NCBI GenBank assembly: GCA_021805825.1
Contig: JAJZEC010000029.1
Location: 1 to 44,928 of the forward strand
Reading direction: 5' to 3'
From: Pseudomonadota bacterium
Lineage (GTDB): Bacteria; Pseudomonadota; Gammaproteobacteria; Burkholderiales; Burkholderiaceae_C
Length of the DNA stretch: 44,928 nucleotides
This document shows positions 17,853 to 43,252 of the stretch, in pieces. A model generated the notes under the pieces. That model had not been told where the DNA came from and did not search any database. It saw only the letters and a program-made list of their open reading frames with translations. The position numbers and the translations under genes were made by a program. Numbering within the stretch: the first letter of the stretch is position 1; the number at the start of each line of letters is the position of its first letter.

Positions 17853-20471
17853 ATGCTGCACGGCATGCATGTATCCGAGGGCTCGCCCATCCTCTCCGCG
17901 CTGTCGCGCCTGCCGGCCGCGCAGATCGGCCACGCCGCACTGGAGGCGATGGAGTTGGGCGCGATGATCGTCGATGCCCGCGATCCCGCACGCCCGCTGC
18001 TCTATGTCAACCCGGCCTACTGCCGCATCACGGGCTGCAGCGCCGAGGACGCGCTGGGAGCGGCGGTGCGCTGGCTGGGCAGCGCCGAGGGGGGCGAACC
18101 GGCGGAGCAGGAAGCACGCGCAGCCCTCGCCGAGGCGCGCGCCTGCAGCGTCGAGCTGTGCAGCCGCGGTGCCGACGGCAGCCCGCGCTGGATCGGCCTC
18201 AGCCTGCAGCCGCTGCTCGATGCCAAGGATCCGCAGGCCCGCCCCGCCTACCTGCTCGGGCTGCTGCGCGATGTCACGCAGCTGCGCGAGGATCGTCGGC
18301 AGCAGCAGGCAACCCGGCTGCTGTACCGTGCGCTGCTGGTCGAGCAGGATCTGGTGCTGGCCGGCGGCGACCTCGGCGACGTGCTGCAGCATGCCTGCGA
18401 GCGCCTGGCCGAGGCCGGGCTCTTCCACGCCGTGCTCATCGGCCGCGCGGGGCACCATGGCCATGTCGACGTGCTGGCGCAGGCGGGCATGGTGCACATC
18501 AGCGAGGACTGGTACCAGCCGCCGGTGGTCGGCGAGCATGCCGAGCACAGCCTGGCCGGCCGCGCCTGGAACCTGCGGCGCCTGCAATACAGCAACGACT
18601 ACCTCGACGACCCCACGCTGCCGCTGTACCGTGAGCCGATGCGGCGCCTGGGCGGGCAGGCGGCTGCGGCGGTTCCGATCCTGCGCGGAGGCCATCGCTG
18701 GGCATTGCTCCAGGTCGTGGCCACGCAGCAGGGCGCCTGCACCCCGGAGGTGCTCGAACTCCTCGATCGCGTGGCGCGCCTGCTCGGCCACGCATTGGAC
18801 GCCTTCGACCTGCGCCGCCGCCTGCAGCAGGAGCAGCACCACATCTCCTGGCTGGCCGAGCACGACCCGCTGACGGGACTGCTCAACCGCCGCGGGCTGC
18901 GCCTGCGGCTGCAGGAACTGCTGCGGCAGACCGATGCCCAGGGAGGCTTCGTCGCCGTGGGCATCCTGGATTTCGACGATTTCAAGAACATCAACGACAG
19001 CCATGGCCATGCCGCCGGCGACGCCCTGCTGCGCGCGGTGGCCGCGCGCCTGGTCGAGGCCGTGCGCTCATCCGACATGATCGCGCGCCTGGGCGGCGAC
19101 GAGATCGTGCTCGTCATGCAGGGCCTGGTGGCACGCGAGGATCTGGATCCGGTGCTCGAGCGCATCCGGCAGTGCGTGGACGAGCCGGTGACCCTGCCGC
19201 CCGGCGACTCGGTGGTGCAGGTGCACGCCAGCCTGGGCCTGACGGTGTATCCGGACGACGCCAGCGAGGCTGACGAACTGCTGCGCCACGCCGACCAGGC
19301 CCTGTACGCGATCAAGCGCCAGCCCAGGGGCGGCACGGCGCCGTTCTGGCGTCTGTACCAGCCGCAGGTCGATCGCGACCACTTCCACCACCTCCGCCTG
19401 GTGCGCGAGCGCCTGGCCGGCGGCGGCTTGCGTGTGTACTACCAGCCGGTGGTCGACATGGCCAGCTGGCGGGTGGTCGAGGTCGAGGCACTGGCGCGCC
19501 TGGACGACGGCCATGGAGGGCTGATCGGGCCGCTGGATTTCATCCACCAGCTGGGTCGCGACGGGCTGGCCGACCTTACCGTCGCCGTGCTGCGGCAGGC
19601 CGCCACCGATGCGCTGCGCTGGCAGCGCCAGGCCGGGGTGGAACTGTCGGTGGCGGTCAATATCGACCCTTTGCTGCTGGCCTCCGGCGAGGCGCTGGAT
19701 ACCGTGCGCGAGGTCGCCGAGGGCATCGGCCTGCAGCCGCAGCGCATGGTGCTGGAGCTGCTCGAGCACAACGACCTGCTGTCCTTCTCCTCGGCTCAGG
19801 ACACCCTGACGGCGCTGCGGGCCTACGGCTGCCGGATCGCGCTCGACGACGTGGGCAGCGCCTATTCCTCGCTGCTGCGGGTGAAGGAGTTGCCGATCGA
19901 CATCATCAAGCTCGACCAGGGCTTCATCCGTGGCCTGAGCGACAACCCGCAGGATCTGCGCTTCGTGCAGAGCCTGGCGCAGCTGGCCCGCGGTCTGGGG
20001 GTGGATTTTGTCGCCGAAGGCGCGGAAACCCCCGACATCGTCGATGCCCTGCACGCCTTGCGCGTGCCCCAGGCCCAGGGTTGGGGCATCGCGCGGCCGA
20101 TGCCGGCCGAGGCCTTCGCATCCTGGATCAGCGCGTGGCAGCCGCGGCGGCCTTCACCCGAGCCGGGGCTGCTCAGTTGCGTCGCGCAGCAACTGGTGGC
20201 GCTGGACACCGACCTGCTGATCGCGCGCCAATACCCCGATTCCATGCCGCCGCTGCTGATGAGCCGCGGTGCCGCCGAGGGGCCGGTGGGCCGCTGGCTG
20301 CGCGGTGCCCGACTGGGCGCGCAGCATCCGCTGGCGCTGGCCTACGCTGAGCTGTACGCGATGTACCGCGACTGGGTCGCGGCCGGCCCCGGTGCCGACG
20401 ATGCCATGGCGCAATCGGCGATGGATCACCTGCTGCGCTGCGCCGGCGACTACCTGCGCGCGCAGCGCTGA
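17853..20471 (+). CDS. PAS-GAF-GGDEF-EAL cyclic-di-GMP protein with C-terminal extension
   Basis: This 872-residue cytoplasmic protein has no membrane helix. A PAS domain is at ~20-150 (ILxVNPAYCRITG-type motif), a GAF-like region at ~170-320, GGDEF at ~335-500 and EAL at ~520-760. The GGDEF motif reads GGDEI, so cyclase activity is uncertain. The EAL domain keeps EVEALARL, the Asn of AVNIDP, DDVGSAYSSL, KLDQGFI and EGAET, so c-di-GMP phosphodiesterase activity is likely. A tail of ~110 residues (763-872) follows; its VGRWLRGARLGAQHPL resembles the CZB pattern but lacks an evident Cys. ATG 17853 was chosen over 17865, with GGCGGA upstream. The gene converges on lolD with a 5-nt gap. Confidence 0.88.
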   Translation: MLHGMHVSEGSPILSALSRLPAAQIGHAALEAMELGAMIVDARDPARPLLYVNPAYCRITGCSAEDALGAAVRWLGSAEGGEPAEQEARAALAEARACSVELCSRGADGSPRWIGLSLQPLLDAKDPQARPAYLLGLLRDVTQLREDRRQQQATRLLYRALLVEQDLVLAGGDLGDVLQHACERLAEAGLFHAVLIGRAGHHGHVDVLAQAGMVHISEDWYQPPVVGEHAEHSLAGRAWNLRRLQYSNDYLDDPTLPLYREPMRRLGGQAAAAVPILRGGHRWALLQVVATQQGACTPEVLELLDRVARLLGHALDAFDLRRRLQQEQHHISWLAEHDPLTGLLNRRGLRLRLQELLRQTDAQGGFVAVGILDFDDFKNINDSHGHAAGDALLRAVAARLVEAVRSSDMIARLGGDEIVLVMQGLVAREDLDPVLERIRQCVDEPVTLPPGDSVVQVHASLGLTVYPDDASEADELLRHADQALYAIKRQPRGGTAPFWRLYQPQVDRDHFHHLRLVRERLAGGGLRVYYQPVVDMASWRVVEVEALARLDDGHGGLIGPLDFIHQLGRDGLADLTVAVLRQAATDALRWQRQAGVELSVAVNIDPLLLASGEALDTVREVAEGIGLQPQRMVLELLEHNDLLSFSSAQDTLTALRAYGCRIALDDVGSAYSSLLRVKELPIDIIKLDQGFIRGLSDNPQDLRFVQSLAQLARGLGVDFVAEGAETPDIVDALHALRVPQAQGWGIARPMPAEAFASWISAWQPRRPSPEPGLLSCVAQQLVALDTDLLIARQYPDSMPPLLMSRGAAEGPVGRWLRGARLGAQHPLALAYAELYAMYRDWVAAGPGADDAMAQSAMDHLLRCAGDYLRAQR

Positions 20472-20476: not shown

Positions 20477-21172
20477 TCATGCGGGCGGCGGCTGCAGCTT
20501 GCCATGCTGCAGCCGCAGCATGCGGTCGCAGCGCGCGGCCAGCGACTGGTCGTGGGTCACCAGCACCATCGCGCTGGCGTGCTGCCGGCTCATGCGCTGG
20601 AGCAGGGCGAACACCTGTTCGGCGCTTTCGGCGTCGAGGTTTCCGGTCGGCTCGTCGGCCAGCAGCAGCGCCGGTTCGGTGACCAGCGCGCGCGCCAGCG
20701 CCACGCGCTGGCGCTCGCCTCCGGACAGCTCGGCCGGTCGGTGGCGCAGGCGCTGGACGAGGCCCACCTGTTCCAGCAGCGCGGCTGCGCGCGGCAGGGC
20801 TTCGGCGACCGGCATGCGGCGTATGCGAAGGGGCATCATCACATTGTCCAGTGCGCTGAACTCCGGCAGCAGGTGGTGGAACTGATAGACGAAACCGATG
20901 TGCCGGTTGCGCCACTGCCCCTGCTGCGCCGGGTTCAGCGCGCGCCAGTCGGCGCCGCACACCTCGATGCTCCCCGAGTCGGCCGCGTCCAGCCCGCCAA
21001 GCAGGTGCAGCAAGGTGCTCTTGCCCGAGCCCGAAGCCCCGGTGATGGCCAGTGTCTCGCCGCGTCGCAGCTGCAGGTCGACGTCGCTCAGCACGTCCAC
21101 GGTCTGCGGCCCTCCGCTGTAGCGCTTGCTCAGGTGGCGTGCGCGCAGCACGCATGCGTCGGCTTCGGTCAT
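20477..21172 (-). CDS. lolD: LolD-type ABC transporter ATP-binding protein
   Basis: This 231-residue ATPase has Walker A GASGSGKST, QFHHLLPEFSALDNV (a segment typical of LolD), signature LSGGERQRVALARAL and Walker B LLLADEPTGNLD. LolD powers LolCE, which extracts lipoproteins from the inner membrane for transfer to LolA. Neither LolC nor LolE is encoded beside it. Instead its ATG overlaps the stop of the sugar dehydratase gene by 4 nt, so it is translationally coupled to the glycan operon. It may still serve LolCE encoded elsewhere, or belong to a different MacB-like exporter. The family match is strong; the exact partner is open. Confidence 0.82.
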   Translation of the reverse strand: MTEADACVLRARHLSKRYSGGPQTVDVLSDVDLQLRRGETLAITGASGSGKSTLLHLLGGLDAADSGSIEVCGADWRALNPAQQGQWRNRHIGFVYQFHHLLPEFSALDNVMMPLRIRRMPVAEALPRAAALLEQVGLVQRLRHRPAELSGGERQRVALARALVTEPALLLADEPTGNLDAESAEQVFALLQRMSRQHASAMVLVTHDQSLAARCDRMLRLQHGKLQPPPA

Positions 21173-23021
21173 GCCGGGGGCTCCGGGCCGCGTTGCGGCT
21201 GGTATTCGGGAACAAGTTCGGCCAGCCGGCGGCGAACCAGGGCGGGCGAGGTTTCGGCGCCGACATCGAAGTCGCGGCGCAGGGCATCCAGCTCGAGCGC
21301 GGCGCCGTCGGCCTCGGCGTGACGCGCCACGCGCAGCTTGGGATGCGGAGTGGGCAGCGTGGTCTCGTCGTCGGCCAGCAGTTCCTCGAACAGTTTCTCC
21401 CCGGGGCGCAGGCCGGTGAACACCACCGGCACCTCGTCCTCGGTGCGCCCCGACAGGCGGATCATCAGGCGCGCGAGCTCGACGATGCGCACTGGTTCGC
21501 CCATGTCGAGCACGTAGATGTGGCCACTGTGTCCGACCAGCGCAGCCTGCAGCAGCAGCTGCGCGGCCTCGGCGATGCTCATGAAGTAGCGCACGATGTC
21601 CGGGTGGGTGACGGTGACCGGCCCGCCATGGGCGATCTGCTGCGCGAAGCGCGGCACCACGCTGCCGCTGGAGCCCAGCACATTGCCGAAACGCACCGCG
21701 ACCATGCTGGTGGCCGGGTGCGCGGCGGCCAGCGCCAGCAGCGCGCGCTCGGCCAGGCGCTTGCTCGCGCCCATCACATTGGTCGGGTTCACGGCCTTGT
21801 CGGTCGAGACCAGCACGAAGCGCTGCGCCCCGCACAGCGCGGCCGCGCGCGCGGCGTTCAGCGTGCCCAGCACGTTGGTGCGTACTGCCTCGATGGCATT
21901 GTCCTGCTCCATCAGCGGCACATGCTTGCAGGCCGCGGCGTGGAACACCACGCGCGGCCGCCAAGCCTGGAACAGCTCCAGCATGCGCTGCGCTTCGCGC
22001 ACATTGGCCGTCAGGTAGCGTACCGGCAGCGCCGGGTGGCGGCTGCCCAGTTCCTGCTCGAGGCGGTAGATCGCGTACTCCGAGCTGTCGATGCATACCA
22101 GGCTGCCGATCCCGAAGCGGGCCAGCTGCCGGCACAGTTCGGAGCCGATCGATCCGCCGGCGCCGGTGACCAGCGCGCAGCCCCCGGCGAGCAGCTCGGA
22201 CAGGCCGCGGGCGTCGAGTTCCACCGTCTCGCGGCCCAGCAGGTCGTCGAGCTGCAGGCTGCGCAGCGCGATGTTGCCCTGCGGCAGCCAGTCCTCGGCG
22301 CGCGGCTGGGTGAGCAGCGTCAGCTGCGCGTCGCTGGCCTGCTCCAGCAGCAGGCGGCGCCGGTCGGAGCCGGCGCGCGCCGCCACCAGCGCGTGCCGCA
22401 GGCGCAGCGCGCGCGCGGCCTCGGCCAGCGACTGCGGCGCGCCGAGCACGTCCAGCCCCTGCAGGCTGCTGCCGACCTCGGCGACCAGCGGGCTGTACAC
22501 CGCGCGCGCGTGCCACTGGCGGTTGCCGCGCAGTGCCTGCAGCGCCTCCGCCGCCTCGTCGACGCTGCCCAGCACCAGCAGCGGCTGGGCTCCGTCGGGC
22601 ATGCGCCGCTCTGCGCGCGCGCGCGCGCGCAACCGCAAGGCCAGCAGCGCGCTGCCGGCCAGCAGCGGATGGATGAGCACGATCGAACGCGGGAACGAGG
22701 CCAGCCGCACGATCAGCAGGGTGGCGGCCAGCGCCAGCGCGGCCACCCCTGAGGCCGTGGCCAGGCGGCGCACGTCCGGCAGGCTGGCATAGCGCCAGGG
22801 CGTGCGGTAGACGCCGAAGGCGAGCAGGCAGCCGCTCCAGACGATGACCGCCAACGGCAGGCTGACGGCGACGATGTGCACGATGTTGGCCGGCGCATTG
22901 TTGCGCAGCAGGCTGAAGCGGAACACGAACGCGGCCAGCCAGCACAGCGCCACCGCCAGCGCGTCCTGCAGCGGCGGGCTCCAGCCGATGCGGCTGGCGG
23001 TCGCGCTCCTCCACCATCCGC

Positions 23022-23025
<4 letters not shown>
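21169..23025 (-). CDS. membrane-bound UDP-GlcNAc 4,6-dehydratase (PglF/WbpM/LegB-like)
   Basis: This 618-residue protein has about four N-terminal membrane helices, a first Rossmann-like region (LLVLGSVDEAAEALQAL), and a C-terminal short-chain dehydrogenase domain with TGAGGSIGSELCRQL at ~285 and the WbpM-type catalytic segment TNVMGASKRLAER (Met in place of the usual Tyr). Such enzymes convert UDP-GlcNAc to the 4-keto-6-deoxy sugar nucleotide, the first step to bacillosamine, QuiNAc and legionaminic acid. It overlaps the aminotransferase stop upstream and the lolD start downstream by 4 nt each, so it sits in a translationally coupled chain. A run of nine GC dinucleotides lies inside the gene (22613-22630). 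Confidence 0.9.
22613..22630. repeat. (GC)9 dinucleotide tract within the dehydratase gene
   Basis: An uninterrupted run of nine GC units lies between the membrane part and the catalytic part of the dehydratase and encodes an Arg-Ala repeat. Slippage by one unit would shift the frame. A shorter run of seven units lies at 33251-33264 in the flippase gene of the same operon. Confidence 0.9.
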
Positions 23026-24512
<1,487 letters not shown>

Positions 24513-24514
24513 GG

Positions 24515-25159
24515 TCAGGAAGCGGATTTCAGAGTCCGTGCCGGCACTCCCGCCCAGCGCTGGCCGTCGGGCACCGAGCGCGTGGCCAGCGCCCCGGCAC
24601 CCAGCGTGGCCGCGGCGCCGACCGTGCGTTCGGGCAGCACGACGCAGCCGGCGCCGAGCAGTGCGCCGGCGCCCACACGCACGCCGCCGCCCAGCACCGC
24701 GCCTGGTGCCACATGGCACCAGGCGTCGAGCGCGCAGTCGTGGTCGACGACCGCGCCGTGGTTGACGATCACGCCGGCGCCCAGGCGCGCCAGCGGTCCG
24801 ACCACGGCCTGCGCGGCGAGCAGGCAGCCAGGGCCGACTTCGGCGCTCGGCGCCAGTGCCGCCCGCGGATGCACGACACTGGCCAGCGGAGCCAGCCCGC
24901 GCAAGGCCTCTGCCTCGGCGCGGCGGCTGGTGTTGTCGCCGATGGCCACGTGCAGTGCCAGGTTCCCCGACAGCCCGCGCAGCGCATCGGGCGCCAGGAT
25001 CGGCACCCCGGGCAGCAACTGCGTTCCCCACAGTGCCGGGTCGCGGTCGGAGGCCACCACCCCGCGCCAGCCGCCGGCGGCCAGCGCCGCGTCGGCGACC
25101 ACGCGCCCGTGGCCACGGGCGCCGAACACGATCAGCAGGGTGTCGCAGGGAGCGGGCAT
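24515..25159 (-). CDS. sugar O/N-acyltransferase, PglD/NeuD/LegH-like
   Basis: This 214-residue protein has an N-terminal Rossmann-like region (IVFGARGHGRVVADAAL) and a C-terminal left-handed beta-helix of hexapeptide repeats (HPRAALAPSAEVGPGCLL through VGAGALLGAGCVVLP). That is the PglD/NeuD architecture. The conserved His in HGAVVDHDC is the expected catalytic base. It most likely uses acetyl-CoA to acylate the 4-amino group created by the CBS-aminotransferase, giving UDP-2,4-diacetamido-2,4,6-trideoxyhexose. It is packed between the 2-epimerase and aminotransferase genes with 2-nt gaps. NeuD-type sialic acid O-acetylation is the alternative, but the neighbouring dehydratase and aminotransferase favour the LegH/PglD role. 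Confidence 0.87.
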   Translation of the reverse strand: MPAPCDTLLIVFGARGHGRVVADAALAAGGWRGVVASDRDPALWGTQLLPGVPILAPDALRGLSGNLALHVAIGDNTSRRAEAEALRGLAPLASVVHPRAALAPSAEVGPGCLLAAQAVVGPLARLGAGVIVNHGAVVDHDCALDAWCHVAPGAVLGGGVRVGAGALLGAGCVVLPERTVGAAATLGAGALATRSVPDGQRWAGVPARTLKSAS

Positions 25160-25161
25160 GG

Positions 25162-26322
25162 TCAGTAGCGGTTGGCCTTGAGCAGCACGGCGTCGTCCAG
25201 CGGCAAGGCGGCCAGGCGGGCCGCGATGCGCGCCGCGCTCCGGCCGTCGCCATAGACATTATGCGCAGCCGCGCGGGGCTGCCCGCAGGCGCTGCGCAGC
25301 GCGGCTGCGATGGATTGCGCATGCGCATCGACGTCGAGCGTTCCGGGGTTGCGTTCGCGCAACTGCTGGCGCTGGCCGACGTTGACCACCGGGGTGCCGA
25401 AGCTGGCCGCCTCGATGATTCCCGACGAGGAATTGCCGACCAGCACCAGCGCATGGCGCAGCGCCTGCAGGTAGAGGTCGCGCGGCAGGTGGGCGCGCAA
25501 TTGCCAGCCGCCCGGCAGCGCGTCCAGCTGGCGCAGCACCGCGGCCGAGCCGGCGTCGGCGTTCGGCGCCAGCCACAGCACATCGAAGTCCCGGCCAGCG
25601 CCGGCGTCGCGCAGGCCCTGCAGCAGCGCCGCGGTCTGCGCCCCGGCCTGCTCGGCCTGCTGCACCACCGGGTGGAACAGCACCAGGGCCCAGGGCCGCC
25701 CCGCGCCGATGCCCAGCTGCCGTGCCACTTCGTCGCGCCCGGCCGCGAAGGACGCGGGAAGGTCGTCCAGCCCCGGCGCACCGACCACGAACACCCGCCA
25801 GGGATCCTCGCCCATGGCGATCAGGCGCTCGCGCGACTGCTCGGTGGCCGGGAAATGCCAGGTCGCCATCTTGCTGATCGCGTGCCGCAGGGCTTCGTCG
25901 ACCGTGCCGCTGCGCTCGCCCCCATGCACGTGCACGCTGGGGATGCCCAGATGCAGCGCGGCGGTGGCGCCGGCCAGCATTTCACCGCGGTCGCCGAGCA
26001 GCAGCAGCAGGTCGGGGCGATCCTCGGCCAGGTGCGCGCTCAGGCCCAGCAGGGTCTGGCCGACGGCGCGCGCCATGCCGGCGCGGTCGCGCGCGGCCAC
26101 ATCGCTGCGGATGCGTGCGACCACCGGCAGGCCGGCGGCCTCGATGTCCTCGACGGTGTGGCCGAAGGCCGGCTCCAGGTGCATGCCACAGGCAGCCACC
26201 TGCACGGCCAGGTCGGGGTGGTCGGCGATGGCCAGCAGGGTACGGCGCATGAGCCCGAAATCCGCCCGCGTGCCGCTCAGGTACAGGATCCGTCGCCGTG
26301 CCGCCATCGCGCGCTCCGTCAT
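25162..26322 (-). CDS. hydrolysing UDP-sugar 2-epimerase, NeuC/LegG-like
   Basis: This 386-residue GT-B-fold enzyme has LSGTRADFGLMRRTL at the N terminus, LLLLGDRGEMLAGATAAL, HVHGGERSGTVDEALRHA and GNSSSGIIEAASFGTPVVN, all typical of NeuC/LegG. It would release the UDP and invert C2, giving a free 2,4-diacetamido-2,4,6-trideoxymannose for NeuB-type condensation. ATG 26322 overlaps the synthase stop by 4 nt and was preferred to an upstream GTG at 26340. Confidence 0.9.
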   Translation of the reverse strand: MTERAMAARRRILYLSGTRADFGLMRRTLLAIADHPDLAVQVAACGMHLEPAFGHTVEDIEAAGLPVVARIRSDVAARDRAGMARAVGQTLLGLSAHLAEDRPDLLLLLGDRGEMLAGATAALHLGIPSVHVHGGERSGTVDEALRHAISKMATWHFPATEQSRERLIAMGEDPWRVFVVGAPGLDDLPASFAAGRDEVARQLGIGAGRPWALVLFHPVVQQAEQAGAQTAALLQGLRDAGAGRDFDVLWLAPNADAGSAAVLRQLDALPGGWQLRAHLPRDLYLQALRHALVLVGNSSSGIIEAASFGTPVVNVGQRQQLRERNPGTLDVDAHAQSIAAALRSACGQPRAAAHNVYGDGRSAARIAARLAALPLDDAVLLKANRY

Positions 26323-27392
26323 GGCTCCAGCTGATCCCACTGCAGCATGCTGCCCGCCGGCGCGGGCGCGCGCAGGCGCCGGCCGACGACCTCGGCCAGC
26401 TGGTGCGCCGGGATGCCGCCAGCCGGACGCCGCAGCAGCAGGTCGGCGCGCTGCAGGATCGCGCCGGCGCCGAGCGCGCGCGCCAGCACCACGCTGCGCC
26501 GCGCCACCGCGCGCACCTCCATCTCCTCGGCGCGCGGGGCCTTGATGCCGTCGCCGAGCATGGCCTCGAGCCGGCGGATTTCCGCCACCAGCTCGGCGAA
26601 GGCCGCCGGCTCGCTCGACGCCGCATGATCAGGGCCCGGCAGCCCGCGATCGAGGGTGATGTGCTTTTCCAGCACCCTGGCGCCCAGCGCCACCGCGGCC
26701 AGCGCCGCGGTGTTGCCCAGGCTGTGATCCGAATAGCCCAGCACCGGCGCACCGAGCTGAGCCAGCGCGCGCAGCGCGCGCAGGTTCAAGGCCGCGTCGG
26801 GCGCCGGATAGGCCGAGGTGCAGTGCAGCACCGCAAGGGCGCCGGCAACTCCGGGGGCCGCCGGCGGCGGCTGCGCGCCCCACACGGCCTCGATCCAATC
26901 CACCGCGGCGCGCACCTCGTCCAGCGTGGCCATGCCGGTCGACAGCAGCAGCGGCAGCCGCGTCGCCGCGGCATGCTCGAGCAGCGGCCGGTTGGTCAGC
27001 TCGCCGGAGGCCAGCTTCAGCCGCCGCACGCCCAGCGCGACCAGCTCGTCGACCGCGTCCTCGGAGAACGGGGTGGACAGGAACTCGATGCCGCGATCGC
27101 GGCAGCGCGCGGCGACCGCGGCGAAGGCGGCGCCATCGAGCTCGAGCGCGCGCAGCATGGCCAGCTGGTCGGTCGCGCCGGTGCGCGCGCGCTGATAAGG
27201 CGCGGTCGCCGCGCCCGGCAGCGCCAGATCCTCGGCCCGGAAGCTCTGGAACTTCACCGCGTCGGCGCCGGCCTCGGCCGCCGCGTCGACCAGCGCCAGC
27301 GCGCGCTCGACGCGGCCGTCGTGGTTGACGCCAGCCTCGGCGATCACGAACACCCTGTCGGTCGCCTGCATCGTGCCATGTTCCGGTGCCAT
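26319..27392 (-). CDS. N-acylneuraminate/legionaminate synthase, NeuB/LegI-like
   Basis: This 357-residue synthase condenses phosphoenolpyruvate with the 6-deoxy-mannose derivative to form a nine-carbon nonulosonic acid. It shows IAEAGVNHDGRVERAL, DAVKFQSFRAEDL, LSTPFSEDAVDEL, KLASGELTNRPLL, LSTGMATLDEV, LGYSDHSLGN and EKHITLDRGLPGPDH, with a C-terminal SAF/antifreeze-like domain (RSVVLARALGAGAIL...). ATG 27392 has an AGGAG a few bases upstream; ATG 27371 is the alternative. It lies between the CMP-transferase and 2-epimerase genes. Confidence 0.93.
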   Translation of the reverse strand: MAPEHGTMQATDRVFVIAEAGVNHDGRVERALALVDAAAEAGADAVKFQSFRAEDLALPGAATAPYQRARTGATDQLAMLRALELDGAAFAAVAARCRDRGIEFLSTPFSEDAVDELVALGVRRLKLASGELTNRPLLEHAAATRLPLLLSTGMATLDEVRAAVDWIEAVWGAQPPPAAPGVAGALAVLHCTSAYPAPDAALNLRALRALAQLGAPVLGYSDHSLGNTAALAAVALGARVLEKHITLDRGLPGPDHAASSEPAAFAELVAEIRRLEAMLGDGIKAPRAEEMEVRAVARRSVVLARALGAGAILQRADLLLRRPAGGIPAHQLAEVVGRRLRAPAPAGSMLQWDQLEP

Positions 27393-27402
27393 GCCTCTCC
27401 TC

Positions 27403-28101
27403 TCAGCCCGCCGCATCCTGCAGCCGCCAGGCCGCCAGCGCGAAATCGTCGGCGTTGTCGATATCCACCGAGCGCTGCAGGGGCATCGGGTGGGCGACCA
27501 CGCGCACGCTCCACAGACCGTCGCGCGCCGCGCGCGCCAGCGCCTCGCGCCGCCAGACATAGATCGATCCGTTGAGCGTCCACACCGGCGGCGCGGCCTG
27601 GCGCGCGGCCAGGCCGCCACCCTTGCAGGGCAGCAGGCTTCCGTCGCCTTGCTGCTCGACCAGATTGAAGTACGGATTGCAACCGCTGTCGAACACCGTC
27701 AGCACCAGATCCGGCGCATCGGCGGCGTCGGCGCGCGCCAGGCAGCCGTCGAGGTCGCCAGGCTGGCGCAGCGGCGAGGTCGGTTGCAGGTCGACGATGC
27801 GCGCGATGTCCTCGCCGCCTGCTTCGATCTGCGCCGCCAGGTGCTCGATCACCGGCAGTTTCGGGGTGTCGTCGCGCGCCAGTTCGGGAGGGCGCAGGTA
27901 CGGCACCCGGGCGCCGGCGGCAGCCGCGACCTCGGCGATCGCCGGGTCGTCGGTGGAGACGTAGACCGCGTCCAGCGCCGGGTGGGCCAGCGCGAACGCG
28001 ATGGTGTGCACGATCAGCGGGCGCCCGCCGAGCAGTCGCAGATGCTTGCCCGGAAGGCCCTTGCTGCCGCCGCGGGCGCAGATGGTGGCGATGGTCTTCA
28101 T
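27403..28101 (-). CDS. CMP-nonulosonate cytidylyltransferase, NeuA/LegF-like
   Basis: This 232-residue nucleotidyltransferase has ICARGGSKGLPGKHLRLLGG at its N terminus, STDDPAIAEVA, DLQPTSPLRQPGD and a C-terminal VDIDNADDFALA, the pattern of CMP-sialic/legionaminic/pseudaminic acid synthetases. It activates the free nonulosonic acid with CTP for glycosyl transfer, completing the six-step pathway here. Its ATG overlaps the stop of the GT-B gene by 4 nt. Confidence 0.92.
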   Translation of the reverse strand: MKTIATICARGGSKGLPGKHLRLLGGRPLIVHTIAFALAHPALDAVYVSTDDPAIAEVAAAAGARVPYLRPPELARDDTPKLPVIEHLAAQIEAGGEDIARIVDLQPTSPLRQPGDLDGCLARADAADAPDLVLTVFDSGCNPYFNLVEQQGDGSLLPCKGGGLAARQAAPPVWTLNGSIYVWRREALARAARDGLWSVRVVAHPMPLQRSVDIDNADDFALAAWRLQDAAG

Positions 28102-29360
28102 GCGCGTGGCTCCATGGGCAGCAGCGACTGTACTTCGCGCGCCACCGCGTCGGCCGCCGCGACGCGACGTGCCCAGGGGCCCGCAGGCGGCGGCGCGCGC
28201 AACACGGCGTCCAGCGCCGCCGGCAGCGCATGCAGATCGGCGACGCCGCGCGCCACGCCCAGCGCGGCGTAATCGATGCCACCCAGCGCCGACGGCGCGC
28301 AGCGCAGCGACAGAACCGGAACGCCGGCCACCGCGGCCTGCAAGCCGACCGTGCTCGCCTGCACGACCACCACGTCGGCGGCGTGCAGCAGGGCCTCGAT
28401 GGGCTCGTCGGCGCCGCGGCTGAGGTGGACGCCGGGCGTGTCGGCGCCATGCGGCATGCGGTGCCAGTGGTTCGGGTGGTGGCGCACGATCAGCGCCGCG
28501 TGCTCGTGCCCGCCGGCCCAGGCGCGCAGGGTGCGCTCCATGGCCAGCGCCAGATCGTCCCCCGCCGGCCACGGCGAATCCGGGTGCGCGCGCAATTCGG
28601 GCTGCGTGGCCAGCAGGACGACGCCGCGGCTTTGCCAGCCGAGGCTGGCGCGCAGCTGCGTGGCCCGCTCCGCCCAGATCGGATCATGCAGGCCGTCGAA
28701 GGCCGGGTTGCCGGTGACGGCGATGCGCCCAGGCGGCCATCCGGCCGCGAGCAGTTGCTCGCGCACGGGCTCGGCCAGCACGCACACGCGTTCGGGCAGC
28801 GGCCGGCGCGCGGCGAAGGCGTTGCCGGGGGGCGCGAACAGGTCGAGCAGCGCCACGCCCGGCAGGCCGGCCGCATGCGCGGCCTCGAGCGCGGCCTGTT
28901 CGCTGCGCGGCGCGTTCGTCGTCAGCACCAGATCCGGACGCAGCGCCTTGATCACCCGCGCGAACCAGGCCACCGGATGGAAGGCCTGGCGGCCGTGGGC
29001 ATGCCACAGGGCCTCGGCCTGCGCCACGCCCAGGCGCTGCCGCAGTTCCAGCGCGTTGATCCCCAGGTAGGCAAGGGTTTCGGCCTCCGTGATGTCCGGG
29101 TGGGTGTTGCCGTCGCGCAGCAGTGCGCCCAAGGCCAGCGCCTGCGCGCGCTCGCCAGGCTCGAGCAGGTGCAGCAGGTCGTGGTAGCCCAGCGGCGACT
29201 CGCCGGCCTCGCGCGCCGCGCGCGCCGCGGTGGTCAGCGCCAGCAGGTCGATGCGCGGTGCCGGCTCGGCGCGACGCAAGGCGCGCAGCACCGGCAGCAG
29301 CATCGCGACATGGCCGCCTCCATAGGCGACGGCGAGGATGCGGGCCGGCCTGGCTGCCAT
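28098..29360 (-). CDS. unassigned GT-B-fold protein (epimerase/glycosyltransferase-like)
   Basis: This 420-residue protein has an N-terminal glycine-rich entry (ILAVAYGGGHVAMLLPVLRAL) and a C-terminal domain with VVVQASTVGLQAAVAGVPVLSL, as in UDP-GlcNAc 2-epimerase, PseG- or LpxB-like GT-B proteins. I cannot name a specific family. Between asnB and the CMP-nonulosonate synthetase, overlapping the latter by 4 nt, a nonulosonate glycosyltransferase or a modifying enzyme is plausible. It is otherwise the only possible glycosyltransferase of the locus apart from the phosphoglycosyl transferase. There is no signal peptide or membrane helix. Confidence 0.6.
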   Translation of the reverse strand: MAARPARILAVAYGGGHVAMLLPVLRALRRAEPAPRIDLLALTTAARAAREAGESPLGYHDLLHLLEPGERAQALALGALLRDGNTHPDITEAETLAYLGINALELRQRLGVAQAEALWHAHGRQAFHPVAWFARVIKALRPDLVLTTNAPRSEQAALEAAHAAGLPGVALLDLFAPPGNAFAARRPLPERVCVLAEPVREQLLAAGWPPGRIAVTGNPAFDGLHDPIWAERATQLRASLGWQSRGVVLLATQPELRAHPDSPWPAGDDLALAMERTLRAWAGGHEHAALIVRHHPNHWHRMPHGADTPGVHLSRGADEPIEALLHAADVVVVQASTVGLQAAVAGVPVLSLRCAPSALGGIDYAALGVARGVADLHALPAALDAVLRAPPPAGPWARRVAAADAVAREVQSLLPMEPRA

Positions 29361-29366
29361 GGGGTG

Positions 29367-31169
29367 TCAGAGCGGAAGTTCGGGACGCACGGCGCGCGCC
29401 CACAGCTCCAGCGCCGCCAGCGCGCGCAGTTCGCGCGTGTGGTTGGCGCTGCCCCGGGCATGATCGTCCAACAACCGGCGCACGAAGCCGCGCTCGAACA
29501 GCCGCGCGCCCAGCGCATCGTCGGCGAACAGCAGCTCGTGCAGCCAGGCCTTGCGCGGGCCACGGAACCATTCGCCGATGGGGACGGTGAACATCTGCTT
29601 GCGGCGCAGCGCCAGGCGCTCGCCGATCAGCGGCTGCACCGCGCGCTTGAACCAGTGCTTCTTGTCGCCATCGACCAGCTTGGTCGTGCCCGGGCTGCGA
29701 AACGCCAGTTCCATCACCCGCCAGTCGAGGAAGGGCGTGCGTGCCTCCAGCGAAACCGCCATGCCCATGCGATCCGGCTTGACCAGGTTGTTGCCGGGAA
29801 GCAGCAGCATCATGTCCAGGTACAGCATCTGGTTGACGCGATCCCAGTGCCCGACCTGTCGAAGCCACGGCAGCGCCAGCTCGCGCACGCTGTCGACCGC
29901 GCGCAGGCGCTGGCGCAACCACGGCTGCAGCAACTGCGCGCGGGCCTCGTACCCGAACAGCCCGCCGCGCTCGATCAGCGCATGGGCGAAGCCCTCGTCG
30001 TCGAGCGCTTCCAGCGCCGGGTCGGCGAACAGCGCGGCGTGCTTGTCGTAGCCGGCGAACAGCTCATCGCCACCGTCGCCGGTGAGCACCACCTTGACCT
30101 CGCCCGCGGCCAGGCGCGCCACCTCCAGCGTGGGCAGGAAGGACGCGTCGCCGTGCGGTTGGTCGCAGTGCCACAGCGCCTGCGGCCAGCCGTCGAGCAG
30201 GTCGGGTTGCACACGCAATTCGCGGTGGCGGCTGCCCAGGCGCTCCGCCGCCTCGCGGGCATAGGGCGATTCATCGAAGCGCGGGTCTTCGAAGCCGATG
30301 CAGTAGCTGCGCACCGGCTCGGCCGCGTGGCGCGCCATCAGCGCCACCACCGTGCTCGAGTCGACCCCGCCGGAGAGAAAGGCGCCGAAGGCGACGTCGG
30401 CGCGCAGGCGCAGGCGCACGGCGTCGTCGAGCAGGGACAGGAACTCCTCCTGCCAGTCGGAGAAAGAGCGCGCCGCGGGCTGCTGCTCGGCCAGGCTCCA
30501 CCAGCGCTGCAGCCGCGTACCCCGCGCGTCCACGCTCAGCGTGCATCCGGGCGGCAGGTGGCGCACGCCTTCGAACAGCGTCCACGGCGGAGGAACGAAG
30601 TTGCAGGCCAGGTAATGCTGCAGCGCGGCCAGGTCGATGCGCGGCGGCCCGGGCAGCGCCGGCAGCAGCGCCTTGATCTCCGAGCCGAACACCAGGCGCG
30701 TGCCATCGTCGTGCAGGTACAGAGGCTTGACCCCGATGCGGTCGCGCACCAGGTGCAGGCGCGGCGCCTGCGCGTCGCGCAGATCCGCGATGGCCACCGC
30801 GAACATCCCGTTGAGCCGCGGCAGGAAGGCCAGGCCCTCGCGTTCATACAGCCGCAGCAGCACCTCGGTGTCGCTGTGGTCGCTGGCGAAGCGAACTCCC
30901 TCGCGCTGAAGCTCCCGGCGCAGTTCGACGTGGTTGTAGATCTCCCCGTTCTGCACCAGGGCGATGCGGCCGTCCTCGGACACGAAAGGCTGGTGGCCGC
31001 CGGCGAGGTCGATGACCGACAGCCGCCGGTTGCCCAATGCCACGCCGGGCGCGCTCCACAGCCCCTGGTCGTCGGGGCCTCGGTGGTGCAGCGCGGTGCC
31101 CATGGCCTGCAGGGTCGCCGCGGCGAGGTCGCGGCCGGCGCGATCGAAGGAACCGTAGATGCCGCACAT
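29367..31169 (-). CDS. asnB: AsnB-type glutamine amidotransferase
   Basis: This 600-residue protein is organised like asparagine synthase B. The mature N terminus starts at Cys2 (MCGIYG), the glutaminase nucleophile, with HHRGPDDQG, LVQNGEIYNH and a C-terminal ATP-pyrophosphatase domain with SGGVDSSTVVAL and TGDGGDELFAGYDKH. Members in polysaccharide clusters often amidate a sugar carboxylate rather than aspartate. Its place between the phosphoglycosyl transferase and the GT-B gene suggests amidation of a uronic or nonulosonic acid, or of an acyl group. That substrate assignment is inference; ordinary asparagine synthesis remains possible. Confidence 0.88.
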   Translation of the reverse strand: MCGIYGSFDRAGRDLAAATLQAMGTALHHRGPDDQGLWSAPGVALGNRRLSVIDLAGGHQPFVSEDGRIALVQNGEIYNHVELRRELQREGVRFASDHSDTEVLLRLYEREGLAFLPRLNGMFAVAIADLRDAQAPRLHLVRDRIGVKPLYLHDDGTRLVFGSEIKALLPALPGPPRIDLAALQHYLACNFVPPPWTLFEGVRHLPPGCTLSVDARGTRLQRWWSLAEQQPAARSFSDWQEEFLSLLDDAVRLRLRADVAFGAFLSGGVDSSTVVALMARHAAEPVRSYCIGFEDPRFDESPYAREAAERLGSRHRELRVQPDLLDGWPQALWHCDQPHGDASFLPTLEVARLAAGEVKVVLTGDGGDELFAGYDKHAALFADPALEALDDEGFAHALIERGGLFGYEARAQLLQPWLRQRLRAVDSVRELALPWLRQVGHWDRVNQMLYLDMMLLLPGNNLVKPDRMGMAVSLEARTPFLDWRVMELAFRSPGTTKLVDGDKKHWFKRAVQPLIGERLALRRKQMFTVPIGEWFRGPRKAWLHELLFADDALGARLFERGFVRRLLDDHARGSANHTRELRALAALELWARAVRPELPL

Positions 31170-31196
31170 GGAGCAGGGGCGTCGGAAAGAGGGGGG

Positions 31197-31757
31197 TCAG
31201 TTGGCGCCGCCGGCGCCCAGGCGCAGCAGGGTGCCGGCCAGGATGCGCAGGTCGCGCAGCAGCCCGGGGGCGCGCGCGTAATCCAGGTCGGCCTGCAGGC
31301 GCTGCGCCGCGCTGGCACGCGAACGGTAGCGCATTTGCGCCAGCCCGGTGAGTCCGGGGCGCACGCTGCAGCGCAGCGCCCAGTCCTCGGGTCGGTAGTC
31401 CGCCTGCTGCGCGGGCACGTCCGGGCGCGGCCCGACCAGGCTCATGTCGCCGCGCAGCACGTTGAACAACTGCGGCAGTTCGTCGACGCTGCTGCGGCGC
31501 AGCCAGCGGCCGACGCGGGTCACGCGGGGATCGGCGCTGGCCGTGCGCTGGGGCCCCAGGCGCTCGGCGTCGACGACCATCGAACGGAACTTGTACATGC
31601 GGAACGGTCTGCCGCCGAGGCCGATGCGCACCTGCGTGAACAGCAGCGGGCGGCCGCTTTCCAGCCACACCGCCAGCGCCGCAGCCAGCATCGGCAGCGC
31701 CAGCAACGGCAGCGCGAGCAGCACCAGCACGAGGTCGAAGGCCCGCTTGGGATTCAC
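31197..31757 (-). CDS. small undecaprenyl-phosphate phosphoglycosyl transferase (PglC-like)
   Basis: This 186-residue monotopic phosphoglycosyl transferase has one N-terminal membrane (re-entrant) helix (LVLVLLALPLLALPML), then FRMYKFRSMVVDAE, the catalytic Asp-Glu pair in SSVDELPQLFNVL, and RGDMSLVGPRPDVPAQ. Its short length fits the PglC type, which moves diNAcBac-phosphate onto undecaprenyl phosphate. It starts with GTG overlapping the aldolase stop by 4 nt. Because the locus also makes PglF/E/D-like enzymes, UDP-diNAcBac is a likely donor. The initiating role at the inner leaflet follows from the family. Confidence 0.9.
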   Translation of the reverse strand: MNPKRAFDLVLVLLALPLLALPMLAAALAVWLESGRPLLFTQVRIGLGGRPFRMYKFRSMVVDAERLGPQRTASADPRVTRVGRWLRRSSVDELPQLFNVLRGDMSLVGPRPDVPAQQADYRPEDWALRCSVRPGLTGLAQMRYRSRASAAQRLQADLDYARAPGLLRDLRILAGTLLRLGAGGAN

Positions 31758-32581
31758 GCCCGCGGTGCGGCCAGGGTACGCGCCGCCTTGCCGATGAGGT
31801 CGCAGGCCAGCAGCCGGTCACTCTCGACCTCCTCGGCGCTGCGCGCGGCCAGCACCGCTTCGCAATGCTGCAGGCGGGTGAGCTGGCCGTGGTAGGTCTC
31901 CCGCCAGTCGCTGTCGGGATCCTCGAACATCTCGCGGTTGAAGGTTCGCGACAGGATCACGCTTTGCGAGCCCAGCCGCAGGTGCTCGCCCAGCACGACC
32001 CGCCCGGGCAGCAGCCCTTCGTCGATGCGCGCGATGCCGCCGAAGCCGAAGCGCAGGTCGTGCGCATGCACGGTGCGCGCCACGCGATCGACGGTGCCAT
32101 CGGCCAGGGGTTCGAACAGGAAGGAGCAGCCGAGCTGGCGGTGCAGGTCGTTGAGACCGACATAGACCTCGTGGATATGCGGGCACTCGATCCATTCGTC
32201 CAGGGTATCGAGCGCGCCGCGCGTTTCCAGCAATGCGATGCAACGGGCGCGACCGCCGATGGCCTCGGCGCAGGCCTGCAGCGCCGGCAGCCCATCGAAC
32301 ATCGGCAGCATCAGGCTGTCGGCGCCATGGCGCAGCGCGTGCTCAACCTCCTCGGCGCTGCCGGCGTGCCAGGGATTGATGCGCACGACCAGGTGCGCGC
32401 GCGGCACCGCGGCGCGCACGGGTGCGATGTCCTGCGGCCGGTGGTCGGAGATGAAGGTGCCCAAGCCGCCCTGGCGCTGCTGCTTGCCCAGGCTTTCGAG
32501 GTCGATCATGATCCTCGGCACCCCGCAGTCCACGGCGAAGGCCGCGAAATCCGGGTGGTTGGTGATCTGGATCCAATCCAT
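31754..32581 (-). CDS. HpcH/HpaI-family aldolase in the glycan operon
   Basis: This 275-residue TIM-barrel protein is of the HpcH/HpaI/citrate lyase beta type. It shows RIMIDLESLGKQQRQ, LVVRINPWHAGSAEEVEHAL, GADSLMLPMFDG, the acidic IALLETRGAL and the metal-site-like YVGLNDLHRQLG. These enzymes cleave or form 2-oxo acids with pyruvate, acetyl-CoA or aldehydes. Such a protein is not part of the standard legionaminic pathway; it may make a 2-keto-acid side group or precursor. ATG 32581 was taken; a TTG at 32623 would extend it by 14 residues. The downstream phosphoglycosyl transferase overlaps it by 4 nt. Confidence 0.8.
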   Translation of the reverse strand: MDWIQITNHPDFAAFAVDCGVPRIMIDLESLGKQQRQGGLGTFISDHRPQDIAPVRAAVPRAHLVVRINPWHAGSAEEVEHALRHGADSLMLPMFDGLPALQACAEAIGGRARCIALLETRGALDTLDEWIECPHIHEVYVGLNDLHRQLGCSFLFEPLADGTVDRVARTVHAHDLRFGFGGIARIDEGLLPGRVVLGEHLRLGSQSVILSRTFNREMFEDPDSDWRETYHGQLTRLQHCEAVLAARSAEEVESDRLLACDLIGKAARTLAAPRA

Positions 32582-32650
32582 CGTTCGACGATCGCTCGCT
32601 GCAGGCTGGGGCGGGGCTTCCAAGGTGGCGGCAGGCAGCCGCCGCGCGCT

Positions 32651-34147
32651 TCAGTGGCGAGTGTAGCGGCGCGCCAGCGACCGTCCCAGCGCTGCGCCCA
32701 TCGCATCGTGGCGCAGGAAGGCCGACAGGCCGGACGCCAGCAGCGCCAGCGCGAGCACGGCCTGCAGGAGGGGCGCCCCGGCCAGCGAAGGCCGCGCTCC
32801 GAGCAGGGCCGCGAGCCCGGCCAGCGTCAGCGAGGCCAGCGCCAGCCAGCGCAGGTTGCCCGACTCGCCCTGCTGCTGGCGGATCGCCAGCCGTTGCCAC
32901 AGCACCACGGTGGCCACCAGATAGGCGGCCCCATAAGCCAGCAGCCCGCGCCACCAGAGGGGCGGCAGGCAGATCGCCACCACCAGCAGCGCGAGCAAGC
33001 CGCAGGCATAGGCCAGCACCTGATCGGCGACACGCCGCTGCGCGTTGAGCCGCGCGGCCAGCACAAGTTGCGCTGCCTGCAGCGGCAGCATCGCAAGGAT
33101 CCAGCGCATCGAGCGCAGCAGTTCGAACTGTGCGACGTCGTTCATGCGGCCCCAGCCGAACACCAGGCGCACGCCCAGCGGTGCCGCCAGCATGCCGACG
33201 CAAGCCAGCAGCAGCGCCAGGCGCAGCATCGACAGCATCCATTGCCGGCCGCGCGCGCGCGCGCCCTCGGTGTCGCCCCCGGCCTGCGCGGCTGCCAGGC
33301 TGGCCAGCGCCAGTGCCGAGGCGACCGCGAACACCGTGTGCAGTGGCAGTTCCCCGATGCGCTGGGCGTACTGGAACACCCCCAGCTGCCCGCTGCCGGC
33401 AGCCGAGGCGAGGCTGCGCGCCACGAGCGCGTACAAGACCGTCAATCCCGAGGCCGCCAGCGCCAGCAGCGCGGCGCGCAGCCCCTGCGCGTCAGGCCAG
33501 CGCCGTGCCGCCGCGGGTGCGCCGCGCCGCGTCCCGAGGCTGCCGAGGGCGCGGCGCAGCAGACCCAGGCGCGCCAGTGCGCCTGCGGCGATACCGGCGG
33601 CGATCCACAACGGCGCGTGCAGCCGGGCTGCCAGCAGCAGGCCGCCGATCAGTGCCAGGTTGAACACCACGTGGCCGGCATACTGCCACTGCAGCCGCCC
33701 CTGCGACTGCAGGGCCGCGGCGGCGACCATGGCCAGCGCGCCGCAGGGCAGCGCGAGCAGCGCGCCCAGCCCGAGCAGCCTGGCGCCCAGCGCGGCGTCC
33801 GCGCCATGCAGCCCCGGGGCGAGCAGGTGCAGCAGGGGCGCCCGCGCCAGCCAGCTGGCCGCCGCGCAGACGGCGAAGGCCAGCAGTGCCAGGCGCGACC
33901 AGCGCGCGGTTTCGGCCGCCACCTCGGGCGCCGCGCGCCCGGCCATGCGCGGCACCATCACCGCCGGTACCGCCGCACCCCACAGCAGCGACACCGTCAG
34001 ATCCGGGTAGGAAAGCGCGACCAGCGCTGCGTCGGCATGGCCGCTGAGCCCGAACTGGGTGGCCACGACGACATCGCGCACGACCCCCAGCAGCCGGCTG
34101 ACGGCCAGCAGCAGCAGGCTGAGGGAAAAGGCACGGGCGACGGACAT
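32651..34147 (-). CDS. MurJ/MVF-family lipid-linked glycan flippase
   Basis: This 498-residue polytopic membrane protein has about 13-14 helices. The N-terminal LAVSRLLGVVRDVVVATQFG is the MurJ signature region, followed by WGAAVPAVMVPRMAG and later FQYAQRIGELPLHTVFAVAS, as in MurJ. As the first gene of the glycan operon, it is probably a MurJ paralogue that flips the Und-PP-linked product made from the phosphoglycosyl transferase onward, replacing a Wzx protein. It could alternatively be the cell's lipid II flippase. A run of seven GC units lies inside it (33251-33264). No promoter was identified in the 118 bp to the divergent tRNA. Confidence 0.82.
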   Translation of the reverse strand: MSVARAFSLSLLLLAVSRLLGVVRDVVVATQFGLSGHADAALVALSYPDLTVSLLWGAAVPAVMVPRMAGRAAPEVAAETARWSRLALLAFAVCAAASWLARAPLLHLLAPGLHGADAALGARLLGLGALLALPCGALAMVAAAALQSQGRLQWQYAGHVVFNLALIGGLLLAARLHAPLWIAAGIAAGALARLGLLRRALGSLGTRRGAPAAARRWPDAQGLRAALLALAASGLTVLYALVARSLASAAGSGQLGVFQYAQRIGELPLHTVFAVASALALASLAAAQAGGDTEGARARGRQWMLSMLRLALLLACVGMLAAPLGVRLVFGWGRMNDVAQFELLRSMRWILAMLPLQAAQLVLAARLNAQRRVADQVLAYACGLLALLVVAICLPPLWWRGLLAYGAAYLVATVVLWQRLAIRQQQGESGNLRWLALASLTLAGLAALLGARPSLAGAPLLQAVLALALLASGLSAFLRHDAMGAALGRSLARRYTRH

Positions 34148-43219: not shown

Positions 43220-43233
43220 ACGAGCCCGCGCAC

Positions 43234-43251: not shown

Positions 43252-43252
43252 A

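What the first reader, a model, noticed from the sequence alone, without database searches (positions are those of the whole stretch)
20477..34147. Twelve-gene translationally coupled glycan operon with a complete nonulosonic acid pathway
The genes run on the minus strand: flippase, aldolase, phosphoglycosyl transferase, amidotransferase, GT-B protein, CMP-transferase, synthase, 2-epimerase, acyltransferase, CBS-aminotransferase, dehydratase, LolD. Six junctions overlap by 4 nt and most other gaps are under 30 nt. The six LegB/C/H/G/I/F-like steps are all present, while no wzy, wzz or other obvious glycosyltransferase is seen. This set is too small for a usual O-antigen locus and may make a short nonulosonate-bearing lipid or protein modification.
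Basis: partly seen in the sequence, partly recalled or inferred. Interest (0 to 1): 0.75.

Follow-up and report, generated by a model that had tools for sequence, protein, structure and literature searches.

The report
Thiomonas legionaminic-acid glycan assembly operon
A tightly packed gene set found in nearly all examined relatives of this sulfur bacterium appears to make a sialic-acid-like sugar and attach it to a small lipid-carried glycan, and related bacteria seem to swap the sugar-making half, together with its likely transferase, while keeping the rest.

Summary
In detail: twelve tightly packed minus-strand genes, 34147-20477, between tRNA-Arg and a GGDEF-EAL gene. I count five 4-nt overlaps, not six. 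The genus is Thiomonas. The six-step CMP-legionaminate route is complete by homology; the dehydratase is PglF-type, not soluble LegB. The locus recurs in the genus: the GT-B protein in 26 of 28 genomes, NeuB in 24 of 28.

Among the 80 closest aldolase loci I see a constant frame (MurJ-like flippase, HpcH/HpaI-type aldolase, phosphoglycosyl transferase, usually AsnB). A variable part follows: the GT-B protein plus a legionaminate-type or pseudaminate cassette. The GT-B protein follows the cassette more than the frame, and in one Thiomonas MAG contig its C-terminal half differs along with it. I therefore read it as the probable nonulosonate transferase, though it does not match sugar type one-to-one.

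Best model: a short undecaprenyl-linked, legionaminate-bearing glycan, flipped by the MurJ-like protein and most likely passed to proteins by the genome's PglL-like ligase. That last step is inferred. The last gene is the genome's best LolD candidate, probably a passenger. Known parts in a modular arrangement I found no description of; closest in logic to the Tannerella O-glycosylation locus.

The parts
32651..34147 (-). MurJ-family (MOP) flippase paralogue, 498 aa
   Evidence: PF03023 70.5 bits; a separate strong MurJ (442.9 bits) lies on C90, so this is probably a locus-specific paralogue
31754..32581 (-). HpcH/HpaI-type (PEP/pyruvate superfamily) protein, 275 aa, substrate unknown
   Evidence: PF03328 27.4 bits; no NCBIfam match; best PDB sequence match only E 0.047; model pLDDT 91.0, Foldseek to pyruvate kinase, HpaI, YfaU and acyl-CoA lyase; R67, E119 and D145 invariant in 16 sequences
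31197..31757 (-). short monotopic phosphoglycosyl transferase, 186 aa, GTG start, DE motif at 92
   Evidence: PF02397 205.3 bits; a PglC and a WbaP chain tie at 107 bits among solved chains; motif
29367..31169 (-). AsnB-like glutamine amidotransferase, 600 aa
   Evidence: PF00733 312.6 bits; TIGR01536 over cut-off; MCG start and SGGVDS motif
28098..29360 (-). GT-B-fold protein, candidate CMP-nonulosonate transferase, 420 aa
   Evidence: model pLDDT 92.5, Foldseek to UDP-GlcNAc 2-epimerases, TM (query) 0.48-0.60 in the 50 listed; 11 of 13 members hit NF046086 glycosyltransferase at E<=0.01; follows the cassette more than the frame
27403..28101 (-). CMP-nonulosonate cytidylyltransferase (NeuA/LegF-like), 232 aa
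   Evidence: PF02348 71.7 bits; TIGR03584 PseF 103.9 bits, below cut-off 205.7; CMP-NeuAc synthetases in PDB
26319..27392 (-). nonulosonate synthase (NeuB/LegI-like) with SAF domain, 357 aa
   Evidence: PF03102 267 bits; TIGR03569 373.9 bits, below cut-off 399.65, PseI 213.9; the only NeuB in the genome
25162..26322 (-). hydrolysing UDP-sugar 2-epimerase (NeuC/LegG-like), 386 aa
   Evidence: TIGR03568 364 bits, over cut-off; best solved relative GDP/UDP-diNAcBac 2-epimerase, 191.7 bits
24515..25159 (-). sugar N-acetyltransferase (NeuD/PglB/LegH-like), 214 aa
   Evidence: TIGR03570 180 bits, over cut-off; best solved relative 4m98, 'pilin glycosylation protein'
23022..24512 (-). CBS domain fused to LegC/PglE-type DegT aminotransferase, 496 aa
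   Evidence: PF00571 plus PF01041; TIGR04181 LegC 345.9 (below its cut-off of 420) against PseC 231.5 bits; PDB 1o61 286.5 bits
21169..23025 (-). full-length UDP-GlcNAc 4,6-dehydratase of PglF/CapD type, 618 aa
   Evidence: PF02719 354 bits; WlaL 277.6 against 2gn4 104.5 bits
20477..21172 (-). LolD-like ABC ATPase, 231 aa, probably a housekeeping passenger
   Evidence: best TIGR02211 match in the genome, 295 bits, below the 307.75 cut-off; LolC-like gene on C5 without an adjacent LolD
34266..34342 (+). tRNA-Arg (acg), upstream border
   Evidence: ARAGORN
17856..20471 (+). GGDEF-EAL protein (start uncertain; the frame is open from 17496), convergent neighbour conserved in Thiomonas
   Evidence: PF00990 and PF00563; beside LolD in 10 of 10 other Thiomonas genomes whose fetched stretch reaches it

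Best explanation
The operon makes CMP-5,7-diacetyl-legionaminic acid (or a close isomer) and builds a short lipid-linked glycan. Steps by homology: dehydratase, CBS-aminotransferase and NeuD make UDP-diNAcBac; NeuC removes UDP and inverts C2; NeuB condenses with a pyruvate unit from PEP; NeuA gives the CMP-sugar. Inferred: the phosphoglycosyl transferase puts a first sugar phosphate on undecaprenyl phosphate; the GT-B protein adds legionaminate; AsnB amidates, and the aldolase-like protein modifies, the constant part; the MurJ-like protein flips the product. A periplasmic ligase, most likely the genome's PglL-like O-oligosaccharyltransferase, passes it to proteins. Related loci exchange the GT-B protein and the cassette, changing the terminal sugar but not the frame.
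For: All six pathway families are present, and the nearest solved relatives of dehydratase, aminotransferase, acetyltransferase and epimerase are enzymes of bacillosamine-type or legionaminate routes (WlaL as PglF and 1o61/4ztc as PglE are recalled). Frame order kept in Thiomonas. In 80 loci the cassette was Leg-type in 43, Pse-type in 7, NeuB only in 6, undetermined in 24; PseB and PseC over cut-off in L107, PseB in L086. Sugar-type changes: 3 on the GT-B tree (0 of 500 shuffles as low), 5 on the frame tree (16 of 500). L081 against L080: Ald 92, PGT 93, AsnB 94, GT-B 59%, with GT-B residues 1-185 at 81% and 190-405 at 44%. PglL-like protein (PglL_A, Wzy_C, Wzy_C_2 over cut-off) in 27 of 28 Thiomonas genomes. 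No PF01973 (Maf) match in the genome (the controls that rang there are four archaea, so a bacterial positive control is missing).
Against: The GT-B protein's nearest solved folds are UDP-GlcNAc 2-epimerases, and no sialyltransferase is among the 50 listed; 7 of 13 members also match the wecB model. Its C-terminal half is alike in L081 (Pse) and L074/L067 (Leg), and differs between Leg-type Thiomonas groups; Leg-Leg pairs go as low as 50% GT-B at 77% AsnB (L058/L072). L081 is one MAG contig. The Leg label rests on NeuC or the aminotransferase and cannot exclude a sialate in loci outside the genus. Of seven GT-B positive genomes outside the genus, G075, G080 and G094 have no PglL match and G052 only a weak one. 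A stand-alone Wzy_C protein on C13 could use the glycan instead. G010 keeps the operon but has no NeuB. An even sample of the order had the aldolase in only 7 of 300 genomes.
Confidence: 0.42

Rival explanations
1. The same lipid-linked legionaminate glycan is joined to lipid A-core (a short LPS cap) by a WaaL-type ligase rather than to proteins.
For: A 403-aa Wzy_C family protein on C13 without PglL domains; PGT and flippase fit either route.
Against: A separate ABC-transporter polysaccharide locus with its own PGT exists on C70. The C13 gene's spread in the genus was not tested.
Confidence: 0.25
2. The operon supplies CMP-legionaminate for flagellin glycosylation in the cytoplasm, by a Maf- or FlmG-type transferase.
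For: The only NeuB of the genome is here; three flagellin-family genes are present, two of them beside DegT aminotransferase and other sugar genes on C8 and C68. FlmG of Caulobacter is a TPR plus GT-B protein (PMC7591256, passages).
Against: No Maf family match; this would not need the PGT, which stands beside the aldolase in 80 of 80 loci, nor the flippase. FlmG-type transferases were not searched for.
Confidence: 0.15
3. The GT-B protein is a sugar epimerase, not a transferase, and the nonulosonate transferase lies elsewhere.
For: PF02350 match in 12 of 13 members at E<=0.01, wecB model in 7 of 13; Foldseek top hits and the best PDB profile hit are epimerases.
Against: The window's match is below the Pfam cut-off (25.9 against 30.6); 11 of 13 match a glycosyltransferase model; the profile also reaches KpsC, a Kdo transferase by recall, at E 2.3e-4; cassette-linked exchange.
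Confidence: 0.2
4. The locus feeds a polymer (capsule or EPS) whose polymerase lies on another contig.
For: Wzy_C protein and EPS-like genes on C52.
Against: C52 has its own PGT and a flippase-family protein; no polymerase in the window's operon.
Confidence: 0.12

Closest known systems
[quoted passage not shown] passages read)
   Same: Flippase gene, asparagine-synthetase-like gene, strain-specific CMP-Pse or CMP-Leg cassette, and a GT-B-type nonulosonate transferase; in cross-complementation neither strain's transferase replaced the other.
   Different: Bacteroidota; five transferases and a decasaccharide there; no HpcH/HpaI-type gene was named in the passages read; no oligosaccharyltransferase identified there; the two transferases there share an identical C-terminal 241 residues, whereas between L081 and L080 the N-terminal half is the conserved part.
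CMP-legionaminate pathways of Legionella and Campylobacter (recalled)
   Same: Same six reaction steps.
   Different: PglF-type dehydratase here instead of soluble LegB; CBS domain is on the aminotransferase, not on a nucleotidyltransferase as in PtmE (recalled).
PglL-dependent O-glycosylation, e.g. Neisseria and Burkholderia (recalled)
   Same: Short PGT, flippase, and a PglL-like ligase in the genome.
   Different: PglL is not in the locus; nonulosonate expected in the glycan; the link is by co-occurrence only.

Membership tests
CMP-legionaminate biosynthesis pathway | all six enzyme families present | tested here: met
CMP-legionaminate biosynthesis pathway | gluco-type (PglF/PglE-like) rather than Pse-type dehydratase and aminotransferase | tested here: met
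   WlaL 277.6 against 2gn4 104.5 bits; 1o61 286.5 against 2fn6 80.8 bits; which protein each entry is, recalled
CMP-legionaminate biosynthesis pathway | dehydratase is the LegB equivalog TIGR04180 | tested here: not met
   32.8 bits against a cut-off of 475
CMP-legionaminate biosynthesis pathway | aminotransferase over the LegC cut-off TIGR04181 | tested here: not met
   345.9 bits against 420, though the best-scoring family
CMP-legionaminate biosynthesis pathway | product is CMP-Leg5Ac7Ac | not testable with these tools
   needs enzymology or mass spectrometry
PglL-type protein O-glycosylation system | PglL-like oligosaccharyltransferase in the genome | tested here: met
   C106 protein with PglL_A, Wzy_C, Wzy_C_2 over cut-off
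PglL-type protein O-glycosylation system | the ligase uses this locus's glycan | not testable with these tools
   co-occurrence only
Wzy-dependent O-antigen locus | wzy and wzz in the locus | tested here: not met
   no such family among the twelve genes
bacterial sialyltransferase (GT-B) | D/E-D/E-G and HP motifs (as named in PMC6388019) | tested here: not met
   HP at 295-296 present (P296 invariant in 13 sequences), no D/E-D/E-G in the window protein
LolD | TIGR02211 equivalog cut-off | tested here: not met
   295 bits against 307.75, though the best in the genome

The most novel reading that the evidence does not exclude
The GT-B protein founds a family of CMP-nonulosonate transferases whose C-terminal half is exchanged by recombination along with the sugar-making cassette, on a constant frame that contains an aldolase-superfamily protein acting in glycan assembly, a role I do not know for that family.
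Probability: 0.3. Interest if true: 0.65.

Novelty: new variant of a known kind. Interest (0 to 1): 0.5.

Why it matters
Known nonulosonate transferases are scarce: a 2019 review (PMC6388019, passages read) says that none had been shown before the Tannerella enzymes and that no predictions existed for Leg transferases. A family that travels with either Leg-type or Pse cassettes, with what looks like a natural domain exchange, would give a direct way to map donor specificity and new enzymes for glycan synthesis. It would also point to a near-universal surface or protein sugar in Thiomonas; the one Thiomonas biofilm and genome paper that I searched for these sugars names none (PMC5481541, passages).

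Tried and rejected
Considered and set aside. Recent island: G+C of the operon region (0.71-0.75) is like that of its recJ side and the synteny is genus-wide. Housekeeping MurJ: a separate 442.9-bit MurJ lies on C90, and the gene upstream of the aldolase is nearer to the window's paralogue than to that MurJ in all 66 loci where either matched. AsnB acting on a nonulosonate acetamidino group: less likely, since close AsnB proteins sit with Leg and Pse cassettes and WbuX-type amidotransferases occur separately in several Pse loci; an inference. PGT using a Leg-pathway intermediate: less likely, since close PGTs sit with Pse cassettes. My first MurJ comparison used a wrong reading frame for the C90 and C52 proteins; those two rows are not used, and repeats the C90 comparison correctly. 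Print: HpcH with legionaminic acid, asparagine synthase and glycosyltransferase gave 0 papers, Thiomonas with nonulosonic acid 0, legionaminic acid with CBS domain 0, BFO_1060 and four neighbouring tags 0; that I found no description of this arrangement rests on these and, which I saw as listings with abstract starts, apart from the passages cited. 212 of the 292 confirmed aldolase relatives were not returned and not examined.

Full report
Observation. One search gives twelve complete minus-strand genes from 34147 to 20477, with five 4-nt overlaps, gaps of 27, 6, 10, 2 and 2 nt and one of 69 nt. The window is the whole of contig C80 (contig length 44928), so what lies beyond its ends in this genome is unknown. 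Borders are tRNA-Arg at 34266-34342 and a convergent GGDEF-EAL gene ending at 20471, with recJ beyond it.

Organism. The window's record is unnamed. I therefore call it Thiomonas.

Pathway. Families for all six steps are present. Over their NCBIfam cut-offs are NeuC and NeuD; LegC-type (345.9 of 420), NeuB (373.9 of 399.65), PseF-type NeuA (103.9 of 205.7) and the dehydratase (PseB 150.5 of 407.75, LegB 32.8 of 475) are under theirs. Solved relatives separate Leg from Pse chemistry: dehydratase WlaL 277.6 bits against 2gn4 104.5, aminotransferase 1o61 286.5 against 2fn6 80.8 (which proteins these entries are is recalled), acetyltransferase 4m98 120.3, epimerase 5xvs 191.7. The NeuB and NeuA matches do not by themselves tell Leg from Neu. 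The CBS domain fused to the aminotransferase was seen in 19 of the 19 loci among L053-L083 with a Leg-type hit, and in full in L118 and L130 outside the genus; L098 lacks it.

Conservation. GT-B protein: 26 of 28 Thiomonas genomes including this one (G019 and G025 without). NeuB: 24 of 28 (G025, G010, G023, G004 without). In G010 NeuA is followed directly by NeuC, without NeuB there or elsewhere. PglL-like protein: 27 of 28 (G025 without; only fragments in G004, G008 and G019). Several of these genomes are incomplete MAGs.

Frame and cassette. The aldolase profile returned 80 loci of 292 confirmed relatives: 31 that I take as Thiomonas by identity (L053-L083) and 49 others, among them Ramlibacter, Acidovorax, Hydrogenophaga, Polaromonas and Nitrospinaceae. 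In 80 of 80 the PGT follows the aldolase; AsnB (52% or more to the window's) follows in 72; in seven (L084, L088, L089, L100, L102, L109, L129) other genes stand there, with a distant AsnB further on, and L110 is cut short. The inserted genes of L084 look like glycine dehydrogenase by eye. A MurJ-like gene is the upstream neighbour in 26 of the 27 Thiomonas loci and 40 of the 49 others with room for one, there at low identity; in L069 it stands 2.3 kb off. The GT-B protein has a match in 72 of 80 held stretches. An even sample of the order found the aldolase in 7 of 300 genomes, so outside Thiomonas it is patchy. By set thresholds the cassette is Leg-type in 43, Pse-type in 7, NeuB only in 6 and undetermined in 24; of these 24, eight are cut short and sixteen have 10 kb held after the aldolase, so for sixteen a cassette is further away, of another kind, or absent. 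The Leg label rests on NeuC or the aminotransferase and cannot exclude a sialate.

The GT-B protein follows the cassette. Trees of 48 rows (47 loci with all four genes, a close AsnB and a Leg or Pse label, plus the window; quick method, no bootstrap): label changes 5 on the Ald+PGT+AsnB tree (16 of 500 shuffles as low) and 3 on the GT-B tree (0 of 500). Five Pse loci from outside Thiomonas form one group on the GT-B tree (SH-aLRT 100), while on the frame tree three of them lie singly among Leg loci and two with L086. On the GT-B tree L086 has a long branch and stands apart, and L081 lies inside Thiomonas. Pairs of close frames with different sugars have GT-B identities of 35-47% (L097/L122, L093/L087, L090/L098, L107/L085, L107/L091; AsnB 75-87%), and 58-59% for L081 with L083 and L080 (AsnB 89-94%); nine pairs not of the Pse-Leg kind have 57-79% (AsnB 74-91%); I chose these sixteen pairs by eye. 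Against it, Thiomonas Leg-Leg pairs reach 50% GT-B at 77% AsnB (L058/L072). In L081 the DNA identity with L080 falls inside the GT-B gene, from 0.81-0.85 to 0.70 and below from about 5474; residues 1-185 are 81% and 190-405 are 44% identical. Also against a simple reading, the L081 C-terminal half is 75-76% identical to Leg-type L074 and L067, and Thiomonas groups with Leg-type or NeuB cassettes differ among themselves by as much (L080 against L074: 63% and 45%). So the exchanged half may read a finer feature of the donor, or the acceptor, and the domain exchange rests on one MAG contig.

Nature of the GT-B protein. The model is confident (pLDDT 92.5). Foldseek finds UDP-GlcNAc 2-epimerases first. 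By profile: 3ot5 epimerase E 8.5e-9, KpsC E 2.3e-4. NF046086 glycosyltransferase matches 11 of 13 members (best E 8.8e-12), TIGR04396 surface carbohydrate protein 12 of 13 and wecB 7 of 13; the window's own NF046086 match is 19.5 bits against a cut-off of 200. I recall the BFO prefix as Tannerella forsythia FDC 92A2; whether BFO_1060 is its nonulosonate transferase I could not check. An HP motif is present, D/E-D/E-G is not.

Acceptor. The genome holds a PglL-like protein on C106, a stand-alone Wzy_C protein on C13 and another on C52. No Maf family match, without a bacterial positive control. Outside the genus, of the seven GT-B positive genomes, G033, G039 and G046 have a clear PglL-like match (the best one of G046 holds two stops, a second is open), G052 a weak one (E 1.5e-5), and G075, G080 and G094 none. 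This favours, but does not show, protein O-glycosylation.

LolD. It is the genome's best TIGR02211 match, under the cut-off; the LolC/E-like gene on C5 has no LolD beside it. A LolD-like gene follows the dehydratase in 10 of 10 other Thiomonas genomes whose fetched stretch reaches it. I take it as a housekeeping gene at the operon's end; that is inference.

Mended: counts of gaps, of AsnB and MurJ neighbours and of undetermined loci, the TM range, NCBIfam cut-offs not met, the low Leg-Leg pairs, the missing bacterial Maf control and the weak PglL match.

Noticed in passing
L041 (G010 C74) 9159-9219, between NeuC and NeuA: NeuB is missing from an otherwise complete operon, and G010 has no NeuB elsewhere.
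   Followed up: partly
L045 10206-10622; L047 10589-11276 and 16077-16736: Small genes that look like PIN-domain toxins and an antitoxin by eye sit between operon genes in some Thiomonas.
   Followed up: no
L084 11563-17464: Seven mostly Acidovorax loci have other genes between PGT and a distant AsnB; in L084 they look like glycine dehydrogenase, with a glutamine-synthetase-like gene after AsnB (names by eye).
   Followed up: no
L139 6043-14124: A 2693-aa frame that looks like a nonribosomal peptide synthetase lies near a Wzy_C gene on C52 (by eye).
   Followed up: no
L144 5214-12000 and L142 1-9222: Two flagellin-family (flgL-like by eye) genes each lie beside DegT aminotransferase and other sugar genes, which look like flagellin glycosylation islands.
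   Followed up: no
window 41920-44358: An open frame of 812 aa with no Pfam match; it may not be a gene.
   Followed up: no
window 1417-12137: Respiratory nitrate reductase subunits with a PilJ-type histidine kinase and LuxR-type response regulators nearby.
   Followed up: no
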